Positions 1-64,000 of a stretch of 64,000 nt of DNA are shown here, in pieces. The position numbers and the translations under genes were made by a program. The first letter of the stretch is position 1. Each line of letters starts with the position of its first letter. Under the pieces are notes generated by a model. It had not been told where the DNA came from, did no database searches, and saw nothing but the letters and a program-made list of their open reading frames with translations. The DNA comes from Opitutales bacterium (GTDB lineage: Bacteria > Verrucomicrobiota > Verrucomicrobiia > Opitutales > UBA953), in assembly GCA_017531845.1 (NCBI GenBank), contig JAFXKI010000011.1, forward strand, positions 181,146 to 245,145, read 5' to 3'.

Positions 1-556
1 CGATTCTTGCGCCTTTAAAATGGCGTCCGATTGCCTCAAGCCTGTTCTTTATCCTCGCACGGTAAGCGGGCGAAATTCCGCCTGTTGCGTCTTTTGCTTC
101 GATGAAATTAAAAATCACGTCCGAAAGCAAAGGCGTTTCATCTTTAGAGCGTTCCCGCTCAATCGCTTCTCTTACCACTTCCGCAAAACTACGCGCGGGC
201 GTGCCTTTCATTTGCGAAGCCATAACATATTCACGCCAAAGCTTTAAGGCGGTTTCTTCCTCTTTCCGGATTGTGCCAAATCCTGCCCCGGCTTGTTTGC
301 CTATCCGGTTTGCATTTCGGGCGGCTTCGTTTGCGGCTTCATATTTTTCTACCGGGAAATGTTGCCGTTTAAGTTTTTCCCTGTTGCTCCCGGGATATTT
401 CTCACCTGTTTTAATGCTTAAGTAAAGCCCCTTCCTTTTTTTATCGAAACATACGGTTGCCGCTTCCCCTTTCTCCAAACCTAACCACCCGCGCCCGGCT
501 TTAACGGCGGGAACGTGTTCAAAGTCTTTACCGATTTTTACGCGCTTTTCAGACAT
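1..556 (-). CDS. Phage-type site-specific integrase, N-terminal part (runs off left edge)
   Basis: An open frame starts with ATG at 556 (protein begins MSEKRVKIGKDFEHVPAV) and stays open to the window edge, about 185 codons. The first 60 residues look like an integrase arm-binding domain (the stretch with CFDKKRKGLYLSIKTGEKYPG); a helical, charged middle follows, and residues from about 145 (SDVIFNFIEAKDATGG.. SPAYRARIKNRLEAIGRHF) look like the core-binding domain of tyrosine recombinases. The catalytic domain with R..HxxR..Y would lie beyond position 1 and cannot be checked. It sits beside a tRNA/tmRNA-like 3' end, the usual place for such a gene. Two copies of the iterated octamer lie in it (near 149 and 508). 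Family call is by pattern, not by search. Confidence 0.6.
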   Translation of the reverse strand, partial: MSEKRVKIGKDFEHVPAVKAGRGWLGLEKGEAATVCFDKKRKGLYLSIKTGEKYPGSNREKLKRQHFPVEKYEAANEAARNANRIGKQAGAGFGTIRKEEETALKLWREYVMASQMKGTPARSFAEVVREAIERERSKDETPLLSDVIFNFIEAKDATGGISPAYRARIKNRLEAIGRHFKGARI

Positions 557-631
557 ACTGCGACGCTATGCGCCCCCGTGAATCCTTGCAAGACTTTTCA
601 CACTTTCGACACACTCGAAAAAAGTTTCCTT

Positions 632-675
632 TGTTTAAAAGGATTTTCGGGGGTTCGAATTCTCACCACCACTTC
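632..675 (+). other. tmRNA/tRNA-like 3' end, probable integration (att) site remnant
   Basis: The stretch GGATTTTCGGGGGTTCGAAT followed by TCTCACCACC resembles the end of tmRNA (ssrA): a GGATTTTCGG segment, a T-loop GGTTCGAAT and a CCA-rich tail. The T-stem pairs poorly and no matching 5' acceptor strand is visible upstream, so it is not an intact gene. A rho-independent terminator follows at once. Seen: the sequence and its position between integrase and terminator. Inferred: this is the 3' fragment left at one end of an element that integrated into ssrA or a tRNA gene. Confidence 0.4.
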
Positions 676-722
676 AAAAAGCCCGCGAATCCGCTTAAAT
701 ACGAGCCTCGCGGGCTTTTTCG
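676..722 (+). terminator. Rho-independent terminator after the tmRNA-like 3' end
   Basis: Arms AAAGCCCGCGA (678-688) and TCGCGGGCTTT (708-718) form a perfect 11-bp stem followed by a T run on the plus strand. It lacks the iterated octamer. Its position fits the native terminator of the RNA gene whose 3' end lies just upstream. Confidence 0.75.
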
Positions 723-940
723 TGCTCGAACAACCTCCTGCATCCTCCAATATAGAATGGCGGAAAGCGCTTTCGATGCCTACCGGATTCTTGTCATTTT
801 CTACGGTCACGTATCCGCACACGCTCCTACTGTTTGCCACACATAAGAAAAATTATCGCATTCCCGGTCCCACACGAAAAAGATGAAAGAACGCCTACGC
901 GGGAAATTTTTACAAGCCATCCCGACATCGCAACCGAAAA
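723..940. other. Intergenic stretch without a recognisable gene
   Basis: Between the RNA-type terminator and the pilC terminator I see no convincing coding frame, RNA gene or repeat. Short open frames cross the terminator hairpin or lack family resemblance. Confidence 0.5.
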
Positions 941-988
941 AAAGCGTTCCCGCGTGAATCGGATTTCTCCGCCGGCGGGAACGCTTTT
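941..988 (-). terminator. Terminator of the pilus operon made of two octamer copies
   Basis: CGTTCCCG at 945-952 and CGGGAACG at 976-983, extended to AAGCGTTCCCGC/GCGGGAACGCTT, form the stem. On the minus strand a run of seven T follows, 30 bases past the pilC stop. Confidence 0.85.
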
Positions 989-1018
989 CTTTAACCGTAA
1001 AACTCTGACACTTTTTTA

Positions 1019-61701: not shown

Positions 61702-61723
61702 GATCTTTTTCCTTCTTTAAAAA

Positions 61724-62104
61724 TTATTTACCGGCTTTCGGGCGCTTAACACCGTACTTGGAGCGGCTGCGGCGACGTTTTTCAACCCCGGCGCAATCCA
61801 ACGGCCCGCGAACGATGTGATAACGTACACCCGGCAAGTCCTTAACACGACCGCCGCGAACGAGCACGACGCTGTGTTCCTGAAGCTTGTGCCCTTCGTC
61901 CGGAATGTAGGAAATGACTTCGACACCCGTCGTAAGACGCACTTTCGCGACTTTACGCTGAGCCGAATTCGGCTTTTTCGGCGTGCGGGTCATAACCTGA
62001 ATGCACACGCCGCGTCTAAACGGAGAGCAATTCAAGGCGGGTGATTTCGACTTGATGTTGGCTTTATTCCGCGGCTTGCGGACGAGTTGATTAATCGTTG
62101 GCAT
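61724..62104 (-). CDS. rpsL: Ribosomal protein S12
   Basis: 126 residues with TRTPKKPNSAQRKVAKVRL (the Lys changed in streptomycin resistance is the wild-type Lys here) and GRVKDLPGVRYHIVRG. First gene of the str operon. Confidence 0.97.
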   Translation of the reverse strand: MPTINQLVRKPRNKANIKSKSPALNCSPFRRGVCIQVMTRTPKKPNSAQRKVAKVRLTTGVEVISYIPDEGHKLQEHSVVLVRGGRVKDLPGVRYHIVRGPLDCAGVEKRRRSRSKYGVKRPKAGK

Positions 62105-62322
62105 TGAAGCTAAACTAAAAATTTGAATGAATAGGAACGGCTATTAATAACTTTTTTGCGTTCCCGCGCAAGCTCTTTTTCAAAATTTTTTGAATTTTTT
62201 CTTGATTCCCGATAAGAAAGCCTCCTGCGAGACTTTTTCCCGCACAAGATTTCCGCTTCGCAAAGACACGTTCCCGCGATTTACGCTTGTTCCCGACGCC
62301 CTTTCCTGCAAATCTTCACAAT
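62105..62322. other. Divergent regulatory region between rpsL and nfeD
   Basis: AT-rich near rpsL; must hold the promoter of the str operon (minus) and of nfeD (plus). Two octamer copies (near 62160 and 62270), both in the same orientation. No convincing hexamer pair identified. Confidence 0.45.
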
Positions 62323-63801
62323 ATGAAAAGTGCTTTTTTCGGGATTCTCACCCTCCTTCTCGGAATGTTTTCCGTGCTCGCCGAACCGTCAGCCCCGACG
62401 GGTAACGTTCTCGCGGCACCAATAAGTGAAGCGAAAAAAATCATTGTCGTTCCCGTACGCGGCGAAATCAATAACGCCAACTGGTATATTTTTCGCCGCG
62501 GCGTGAAAAAGGCTCTTGCCGACCGCGCAGACGCGCTCGTTCTCGATATCGATACGCCCGGCGGAGACCTTGCCGTAACGCTCGACTATATTTCCGCTTT
62601 GCAAAAGTTCCCCGGCAAAACCCTCGCCTTCGTCAATCCCGATGCCATTTCCGCCGGTGCTTACATTTCGGGAGCCACGCAAAAAATCTTTTTCGCTCCC
62701 GACGGAAAAATCGGAGCCGCCGCCGTCGTTTCCGGCAACGGCGAAGATGTCGATAAAACCATGAAAATGAAAATTGACTCTTATCTCGCCGCACTTACGA
62801 AAACATTTTCCAAAGAAAACCCGCGCCGAGCCGACGTTTTGCGCGCGATGTTCGACGCCGATTACGTTTTAAAAATCGACGGAGAAGTTTTGAAAGACCG
62901 CAACGGAGATCCCGTAAAACCGGCGGGAACGCTACTTACACTCACGGCGGAAGAAGCGATGCAGCCTGTCGGAACTCCCGCCGCTCCGCTTTTCGGAGCC
63001 GGTATCTACGATAACATCGACGCAATGCTCGCCGCCGAGTTTGCGGGAACGCCGTATTCCGTCGAAAAAATTGAACCCCTCGGGCTGGAACGCTTTGCAC
63101 AACTTGCCGCGCCGTTTCTTCCTATCTTGCTCGGACTTGGCATGCTTCTGATTTTTATCGAAATCAAATCACCGGGCTTCGGCGTTCCCGGAATCTCCGG
63201 CATCGCGCTCATCGGGCTTTATTTCGCGCTCCAGCACGCGGCAGGGCTCGCCGGCTACGAAGGCGTTCTGCTCTTTTTCGCCGGAGTTGCCCTGATCCTC
63301 GTCGAAATCTTCCTCCTGCCCGGCGTTTTTGTATTCGCGATCGCCGGCATCGCCTGCATCATCGGAAGCATTTTTTGGAGCGGTGTCGACATTTGGCATC
63401 TCCCCGACGGATCTTACGATTTCGACTGGGAGATGCTGTCCACTCCGCTTGAGCACTTGGGACTGACGGTTGTAACGATTTTTGCGGCAACGCTTCTCGC
63501 GTGGAAACTCCTCCCGGCAAAATGGTTCCGCGACAAAATTGTTTTGCAAAACAAAGTCGGAGAACTCGAAGACACCCGCGTCCAAGGCGCACGCTCCCGA
63601 AGCGAAAATCTTCCCGAAATCGGCGCCACGGGAACGGCTCTGACGGATTTTCGTCCGCTCGGCATCGTTGAAATCGACGGACACCAGTTCGAGGCCTCCG
63701 CCGAAAGCGGCGCCATTCAACGCGGGAACGCCATCACGGTCGTCGGCTTTCGCGACTTCGAGCTCATCGTTCGCAGAACCGACGGATCGCTTTCCCGCTA
63801 A
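62323..63801 (+). CDS. NfeD-family membrane serine protease
   Basis: ATG 62323 (MKSAFFGILTLLLGMFSVLA) gives 492 residues. A signal peptide is followed by a ClpP-class protease domain (about 40-240): IPVRGEIN-like strand, LDIDTPGGDL and the nucleophile Ser in AISAGAYIS near residue 109. Four or five membrane helices (about 270-410) and a C-terminal OB-fold NfeD domain (GATGTALTDFRPLGIVEIDG) follow. This is the long NfeD1b layout, involved in membrane quality control, usually beside a stomatin-like gene, which is not within the window. Confidence 0.9.
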   Translation: MKSAFFGILTLLLGMFSVLAEPSAPTGNVLAAPISEAKKIIVVPVRGEINNANWYIFRRGVKKALADRADALVLDIDTPGGDLAVTLDYISALQKFPGKTLAFVNPDAISAGAYISGATQKIFFAPDGKIGAAAVVSGNGEDVDKTMKMKIDSYLAALTKTFSKENPRRADVLRAMFDADYVLKIDGEVLKDRNGDPVKPAGTLLTLTAEEAMQPVGTPAAPLFGAGIYDNIDAMLAAEFAGTPYSVEKIEPLGLERFAQLAAPFLPILLGLGMLLIFIEIKSPGFGVPGISGIALIGLYFALQHAAGLAGYEGVLLFFAGVALILVEIFLLPGVFVFAIAGIACIIGSIFWSGVDIWHLPDGSYDFDWEMLSTPLEHLGLTVVTIFAATLLAWKLLPAKWFRDKIVLQNKVGELEDTRVQGARSRSENLPEIGATGTALTDFRPLGIVEIDGHQFEASAESGAIQRGNAITVVGFRDFELIVRRTDGSLSR

Positions 63802-63822
63802 ATCTTTTCTTTTTATAAAAAC

Positions 63823-63873
63823 AAAAAAAACGTTCCCGCTAAAAACGGCTTTCGCCGCACGGGAACGTTTTTT
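63823..63873 (+). terminator. nfeD terminator, octamer pair
   Basis: Octamers at 63831-63838 and 63860-63867 flank an inner GGC..GCC hairpin; six T follow on the plus strand and an A run precedes, so it may work both ways. Confidence 0.88.
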
Positions 63874-64000
63874 ATTTGACGGGATGTTTTTAAACACTAC
63901 TTTCACGGTTGTGTTTTATATCTCGAAATTATTTTGCGCGTGTTGCATTGCTTTTATCGGCTTTTGCCTTCCGCTTGAAGCGGGAACGTTTTTCCGGGGA
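63874..64000. other. Right edge, no gene recognised
   Basis: No open frame with family resemblance. One further octamer copy lies near 63981; its partner, if any, is beyond the window. Confidence 0.4.

What the first reader, a model, noticed from the sequence alone, without database searches (positions are those of the whole stretch)
1..64000. An octamer, CGGGAACG, is repeated about 90 times more often than chance, equally on both strands
Hand reading gives about 170-175 copies of CGGGAACG/CGTTCCCG in 64 kb against about 2 expected. About 87 are in each orientation. The motif is found in coding sequence of unrelated genes, in several reading frames (A-G-T, G-N-A, R-E-R, V-P-A, F-P, R-S-R), so neither codon bias nor a protein motif explains it. 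It is denser than Neisseria DUS or Haemophilus USS (about one per 1.2 kb). Chi and KOPS sites are strand-skewed and HIP1 is palindromic; this motif is neither. I know of no such motif described in Verrucomicrobiota.
Basis: seen in the sequence. Interest (0 to 1): 0.95.

Follow-up and report, generated by a model that had tools for sequence, protein, structure and literature searches.

The report
Verrucomicrobial DNA self-recognition tag, CGGGAACG
Most genomes of one genus of uncultured Verrucomicrobiota, two of them sequenced from ruminant guts, carry the same eight-letter DNA word thousands of times on both strands and keep it in place between species; it is likely a tag by which the cells would recognise and take up DNA of their own kind.

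Summary
The window holds 175 copies (88/87 by strand; shuffles average 6.7). The 1.69-Mb genome holds 5,192 (2,590/2,602; reversed-word control 86), one per 325 bp. Six of 8 genomes of the genus hold 5,192-6,550 copies; two hold 1,362 and 546. No other genome searched (71 of the family, 383 of the phylum) is comparable. There is no strand skew along 120-220-kb stretches; copies lie in all six reading frames. At orthologous sites with identical residues, the exact octamer is kept in 57 of 76 cases between species at about 65% nucleotide identity, against 20% for matched octamers, while flanks diverge faster than control flanks. Inverted pairs, often with T-runs, form terminator-like hairpins. 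These are published hallmarks of Neisseriaceae DNA uptake sequences. The genome has type IV pilus motors and dprA (in the window), comEC and seven prepilins. No receptor was identified, the two motif-poor species keep the same competence genes, and uptake is untested. A HIP1-like methylation or repair origin is the main rival; the core is not palindromic and no methyltransferase of two families tested is common to the rich genomes. Best reading: an uptake signal outside Pseudomonadota, among the densest described.

The parts
1..64000. Field of 175 copies of CGGGAACG (88 on +, 87 on -); every copy is listed by position
945..983 (.). Inverted motif pair CGTTCCCG...CGGGAACG with T-runs on both sides: likely transcription terminator
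17553..17587 (.). Inverted motif pair with T-run: likely terminator
23637..23664 (.). Inverted motif pair with T-run: likely terminator; the 28 bases are identical to 24742-24769
24742..24769 (.). Inverted motif pair with T-run: likely terminator
38979..39006 (.). Inverted motif pair with T-run: likely terminator
42016..42043 (.). Inverted motif pair with T-run: likely terminator (minus-strand transcript)
43454..43481 (.). Inverted motif pair, terminator-like on both strands
63831..63867 (.). Inverted motif pair with T-runs on both sides: likely bidirectional terminator
1019..2230 (-). pilC-like inner-membrane platform (PF00482 T2SSF), 403 aa
2260..3921 (-). pilB-like assembly ATPase (PF00437 + MshEN), 553 aa
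3943..5031 (-). pilT-like retraction ATPase (PF00437), 362 aa
5081..6802 (-). second pilB-like ATPase (PF00437 + MshEN), 573 aa
14816..15964 (+). dprA (PF02481 + PF17782), 382 aa, 3 motif copies inside

Best explanation
CGGGAACG (preferred context RCGGGAACGY) is a genus-specific octamer, repeated thousands of times on both strands, that most likely works as a DNA uptake signal for natural transformation. Inferred mechanism: a receptor on the type IV pilus would bind CGGGAACG-bearing DNA from dead relatives, PilT would pull it in, ComEC would pass one strand, and DprA and RecA would recombine it. Because alleles with the word would be taken up more often, the word would spread and be kept at permissive sites by biased uptake and recombination (molecular drive). 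Shown here: copy number, genus restriction in the genomes searched, strand balance, Poisson-like spacing, conservation beyond what the protein requires, faster-diverging flanks, inverted-pair hairpins with T-runs, and open pilus-motor, prepilin, comEC and dprA genes. Inferred: uptake, the receptor, and that two motif-poor species have lost the drive and keep relics.
For: Copy number and balance. Genus restriction. Kept at orthologous sites: G012 252/271 vs 62% of matched octamers, G013 83/126 vs 32%, G015 50/85 vs 29%, G011 15/21 vs 26%, G017 69/249 vs 7.9% (p 1.4e-19); with residues identical, G017 57/76 vs 511/2,603. Flanks of conserved copies less conserved than control flanks: 0.919 vs 0.938 (G012), 0.812 vs 0.865 (G013), 0.697 vs 0.747 (G017). 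PMC2397512 (passages) reports the same for DUS, and similar preliminary results for USS: highly conserved, in permissive regions that diverge faster. Inverted pairs within 40 bp: 71 CGTTCCCG..CGGGAACG against 30, 35 and 40 in the other arrangements; T-run in 40/71 against 6/105. PMC3630211 (passages) reports inverted pairs in all genomes with DUS dialects, suggestive of terminators. Machinery. Loss reading: concatenated trees with G017 (rich) beside G014 and G016 (poor); in G014, 15 of 19 close pairs are terminator-type, 13 with T-run. One-base variants in rich genomes: little or no excess at C1, G2 and A5 (1.33, 0.99, 1.04), strong excess at A6 (3.29) and G8>A (4.5), as expected of recognition with strict and lax positions.
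Against: No uptake or transformation was tested; these are uncultured genomes. The motif-poor G014 and G016 keep comEC, dprA, pilB/pilT-type ATPases and relatives of all seven prepilins, so competence genes do not predict the motif. All seven prepilins of G000 are acidic (pI 4.4-5.5), unlike the electropositive DNA-binding pilins described in PMC12616744 (passages). Models of two of them gave no PDB match at E <= 0.001. Codon-atypical genes as a class are not poor in the motif (2.63 per kb in the lowest quintile; the best-adapted quintile is lowest at 2.09), whereas PMC2397512 reports DUS absent from recently acquired genes. PMC1939737 (passages) says that other over-represented words show a similar fall-off with mismatches, so that pattern is not specific to uptake signals. 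The loss reading rests on concatenated trees: the EF-G tree leaves G014, G016 and G017 unresolved and the PGI tree, rooted only at the midpoint, sets G014 with the rich core (that gene may be transferred).
Confidence: 0.6

Rival explanations
1. It is a HIP1-like highly iterated word created and maintained by a methyltransferase-linked repair or mutational process, with no role in DNA uptake.
For: HIP1 is also an octamer at very high genomic frequency and is low or nearly absent in some cyanobacteria (PMC4390886, passages). The context RCG....CGY is a partial dyad. The receptor for uptake was not found.
Against: Core not palindromic. PMC4390886 says that one-base deviations of HIP1 are biased to the first and last bases; here position 1 is near baseline (1.33) while positions 6 (3.29), 8 (2.84) and 3 (2.10) are high. 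No PF01555 enzyme is common to the rich genomes: G000 and G013 have one match each and these are not orthologous (29% identity over 103 residues); PF02384 has no match in rich G017. The assemblies are 95-98% complete, so a missed gene is possible. A methylation origin does not predict T-run hairpins. Cytosine-5 and other methyltransferase families were not searched.
Confidence: 0.22
2. It is the binding site of a chromosomal protein (Chi-like recombination site, nucleoid or segregation factor).
For: Genome-wide, genus-wide, conserved, dense.
Against: No strand bias along stretches of mostly one GC-skew sign: 323/338 in 220 kb and 182/185 in 120 kb. Density 1 per 336 bp with Poisson-like spacing (CV 1.02) rather than domain-scale placement.
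Confidence: 0.15
3. It is a by-product of codon usage, a protein motif, base composition or an assembly artefact.
For: Flanking bases vary with reading frame; sense copies exceed antisense (870/664).
Confidence: 0.01

Closest known systems
DNA uptake sequence (DUS) dialects of Neisseriaceae
   Same: Short, non-palindromic, thousands of copies, conserved at permissive sites, inverted pairs suggestive of terminators, clade-specific word (PMC3630211 and PMC2397512, passages); type IV pilus, ComEC and DprA machinery
   Different: Different phylum and unrelated word; 8-base core rather than 10-12; density 3.08 per kb as 8-mer or 1.90 as RCGGGAACGY against 2.47 for kingDUS; no ComP-like basic minor pilin found; uptake untested; not generally poor in codon-atypical genes
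Uptake signal sequence (USS) of Pasteurellaceae
   Same: About 9-bp word; receptor long unknown and now predicted to be the FimT/GspH-type minor pilin ComN/PpdA (PMC12616744, abstract and passages)
   Different: Word and host unrelated; the candidate pilin here is only weakly FimU/GspH-like
HIP1 of cyanobacteria
   Same: Octamer at extreme frequency, low or nearly absent in some relatives (PMC4390886, passages)
   Different: HIP1 is palindromic and tied to methyltransferases; here non-palindromic core, no shared enzyme in the two families tested, terminator pairs present
Chi and KOPS sites (recalled)
   Same: Over-represented octamers
   Different: No strand skew here and, by recall, much higher density

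Membership tests
DUS/USS-type uptake signal | Short non-palindromic word vastly over-represented across the genome | tested here: met
   5,192 copies vs 86 for the reversed word; 26.6x over masked order-3 Markov in 624 kb
DUS/USS-type uptake signal | Equal use of both strands, no replication polarity | tested here: met
   single 20-kb pieces vary from 40/17 to 23/51
DUS/USS-type uptake signal | Word conserved between species while its flanks diverge faster | tested here: met
DUS/USS-type uptake signal | Inverted pairs forming terminators | tested here: met
   (sequence-level: hairpin plus T-run; termination itself not tested)
DUS/USS-type uptake signal | Type IV pilus and competence genes present | tested here: met
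   not discriminating, since G014 and G016 have them too
DUS/USS-type uptake signal | Sequence-specific DNA receptor (ComP or ComN type minor pilin) | tested here: inconclusive
DUS/USS-type uptake signal | Absent from recently acquired DNA | tested here: inconclusive
   one defence island at 0.82 per kb but no depletion in the codon-atypical quintile
DUS/USS-type uptake signal | DNA with the word is taken up preferentially | not testable with these tools
   needs a living competent culture
HIP1 | Palindromic word | tested here: not met
   CGGGAACG reads CGTTCCCG on the other strand; only the outer RCG/CGY bases are a dyad
HIP1 | Cognate methyltransferase in genomes that carry the word | tested here: inconclusive
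   none shared by all rich genomes in PF01555 or PF02384; cytosine-5 and other families not searched
HIP1 | One-base deviations biased to first and last base | tested here: not met
   position 1 ratio 1.33; position 8 is high (2.84) but so are 6 (3.29) and 3 (2.10)
Chi / KOPS | Strand skew with replication direction (recalled) | tested here: not met

The most novel reading that the evidence does not exclude
This is an uptake-signal system outside Pseudomonadota, with one of the densest words known, evolved in gut Verrucomicrobiota with a receptor of its own, and the genus preserves the stages of such a system: saturated genomes, and relatives in which the drive has stopped and relics remain, in one of them largely as terminators.
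Probability: 0.5. Interest if true: 0.92.

Novelty: new variant of a known kind. Interest (0 to 1): 0.85.

Why it matters
Words used for self-recognition in DNA uptake are described, in the papers seen here, for Neisseriaceae and Pasteurellaceae. A third, unrelated case in another phylum would show that such systems arise repeatedly, would predict natural transformation in an uncultured gut lineage, and would give a within-genus natural experiment (six saturated genomes, two with few copies) on whether the words are kept by selection or by uptake drive alone. If it is not an uptake signal, it is still a conserved word of extreme density that lacks an explanation.
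Full report
OBSERVATION. CGGGAACG occurs 175 times in the window, 88 on one strand and 87 on the other; dinucleotide shuffles give 6.7 on average and never more than 13. In the whole genome (1,687,170 bp, 11 contigs) there are 2,590 + 2,602 copies; the same letters read backwards give 41 + 45. That is one copy per 325 bp. In a 624-kb sample of the genome the ratio to an order-3 Markov model with the motif masked is 26.6; the highest such ratio among 300 matched octamers is 5.4.

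EXTENT. In the family (79 genomes) all eight genomes of the genus stand out, but unequally: 5,192 (own), 6,161, 6,550, 5,274, 5,434 and 5,322 copies, then 1,362 (G014) and 546 (G016); the other 71 family genomes hold 29-375. In 387 genomes drawn from the phylum, the ten-base form RCGGGAACGY gives 2,421-3,992 in the four genus members included and at most 189 in each of the other 383, three of which are also in the family set. Among 80 named loci of Opitutia and neighbours, CGGGAACG is an outlier only in two Opitutales MAGs, RGIG2967 from goat rectum and RGIG9148 from water deer rectum.

ANATOMY. Outside genes the preferred context is R-CGGGAACG-Y (-1: G 62%, A 27%; +1: C 65%, T 24%), so the ends form a partial dyad around an asymmetric centre; the same preference remains at unpaired intergenic copies. 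Copies lie in all six reading frames, 2.78 per kb in genes and 4.34 per kb between genes (genes called by my own script). Spacing is close to Poisson (mean 336, CV 1.02). Strand counts are balanced along stretches of mostly one GC-skew sign (323/338 in C11:1-220k; 182/185 in C9:1-120k), with local imbalance in single 20-kb pieces (40/17, 23/51). Within genes 870 copies are sense and 664 antisense. Neighbouring copies within 40 bp are in the hairpin arrangement 71 times, against 30, 35 and 40 for the other three, and 40 of the 71 have at least 7 T in 12 bases beyond one arm, against 6 of 105. Paired intergenic copies are densest between convergent genes (32 in 8.2 kb), then co-directional (54 in 43.2 kb), and rarest between divergent ones (8 in 15.1 kb). 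Eight of the 12 pairs in the window have the T-run.

CONSERVATION. Reciprocal-best orthologs were codon-aligned and each G000 copy was compared with octamers of the same make-up (two CpG, six G+C). Exact retention: G012 252/271 vs 61.7%; G013 83/126 vs 32.0%; G015 50/85 vs 29.3%; G011 15/21 vs 25.9%; G017 69/249 vs 7.9%. In the poor genomes it is not kept: G014 18/216 vs 16.1%; G016 4/45 vs 10.3%; other genera 0/57 vs 6.6%. Restricting to sites where all overlapping residues are identical removes protein constraint: G017 57/76 vs 511/2,603; G012 232/241 vs 3,602/5,318; G013 72/96 vs 935/2,283; G011 10/10 vs 121/283; but G014 15/77 vs 845/2,704, G016 4/18 vs 170/798 and other genera 0/16 vs 102/581 (G015 was not in that list). 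So the word is maintained at the DNA level in the rich genomes tested and not in the poor ones. Flanks of conserved copies are less conserved than flanks of conserved control octamers (0.919/0.938, 0.812/0.865, 0.697/0.747), the pattern PMC2397512 reports for DUS (passages).

HISTORY. Concatenated protein trees put G017 (rich) with G014 and G016 (poor), opposite the other five rich genomes (99/99, 100/100; G014+G016 weakly paired). The EF-G tree alone does not resolve the three, and the PGI tree sets G014 with the core, perhaps by transfer of that gene. With the sites shared between G017 and G000 the concatenated tree favours a motif old in the genus and lost in G014 and G016. G014 and G016 keep a small excess (5.6x and 2.6x) and more one-base variants than any of 300 control octamers (1.70 and 1.75, with rich genomes at 1.77-2.19 despite many more copies, and other genera at 1.42). 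In G014 15 of 19 close pairs are terminator-type, 13 with T-run, a larger share than in G000 (p 0.003): what relics kept for a second use would look like. The G016 sample (98 kb, 22 copies) has one close pair, not of that type. Convergent gain in G017 is not excluded.

RIVALS. HIP1-like origin: the core is not palindromic, no PF01555 or PF02384 methyltransferase is shared by all rich genomes, and one-base variants do not pile up at the first base. Chi/KOPS-like: no skew. Composition, codon bias or artefact: excluded. Against uptake: no depletion in codon-atypical genes as a class, although one defence island with Cas1, Cas2, HSDR_N, Mrr and AlbA domains has 11 copies in 13.3 kb against 40 expected.

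LITERATURE. Searches of the held open library for the octamer (57 papers, 20 listed; listing only seen, none of the 20 titles concerns this motif), and for uptake sequences or competence with Verrucomicrobia(-ota) or Opitutales (none; one review, listing only) found no description. Subscription papers and preprints are not held, so absence from print is not proven.

VERDICT. Works like a DNA uptake signal in the sequence-level respects tested, except that codon-atypical genes are not depleted and no receptor could be named; membership is unproven because uptake was not testable here.

Noticed in passing
window:23637-23664 and 24742-24769: Two identical 28-bp motif-pair hairpins, each with a nine-base T-run, flank the gene at 23700-24380, suggesting a duplicated or converted terminator.
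   Followed up: partly
L241:1086-14430 (G000:C11): A low-G+C (0.46) defence island with Cas1, Cas2, a type I R-like gene, Mrr and an ankyrin/AlbA gene holds the longest motif-free gap found in the 624-kb sample and only 0.82 copies per kb.
   Followed up: partly
L173 / L226 (G014:C80) and window:29477-31057: The PGI gene of G014 is 92% identical in protein to that of G000 while the neighbouring genes are 34-62% identical, as after homologous transfer between species; it carries none of the 3-4 motif copies of the core genomes.
   Followed up: partly
L160:9292-17349 (G014) and L163:5432-14554 (G016): A T2SS-type cluster (pseudopilins to secretin) is kept in the two motif-poor genomes; the six rich ones have fewer PF07963 matches and one fewer PF00437 match, so they seem to lack it.
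   Followed up: partly
L220 (G002:C22): A 69-bp tandem repeat with an inverted CCCAGGGC...GCCCTGGG core recurs at several places in a sister genus.
   Followed up: no
L163:6510-7169 (G016): A protein rich in T-N-P runs; words such as ACCAACCC are the most over-represented in the G016 sample.
   Followed up: no
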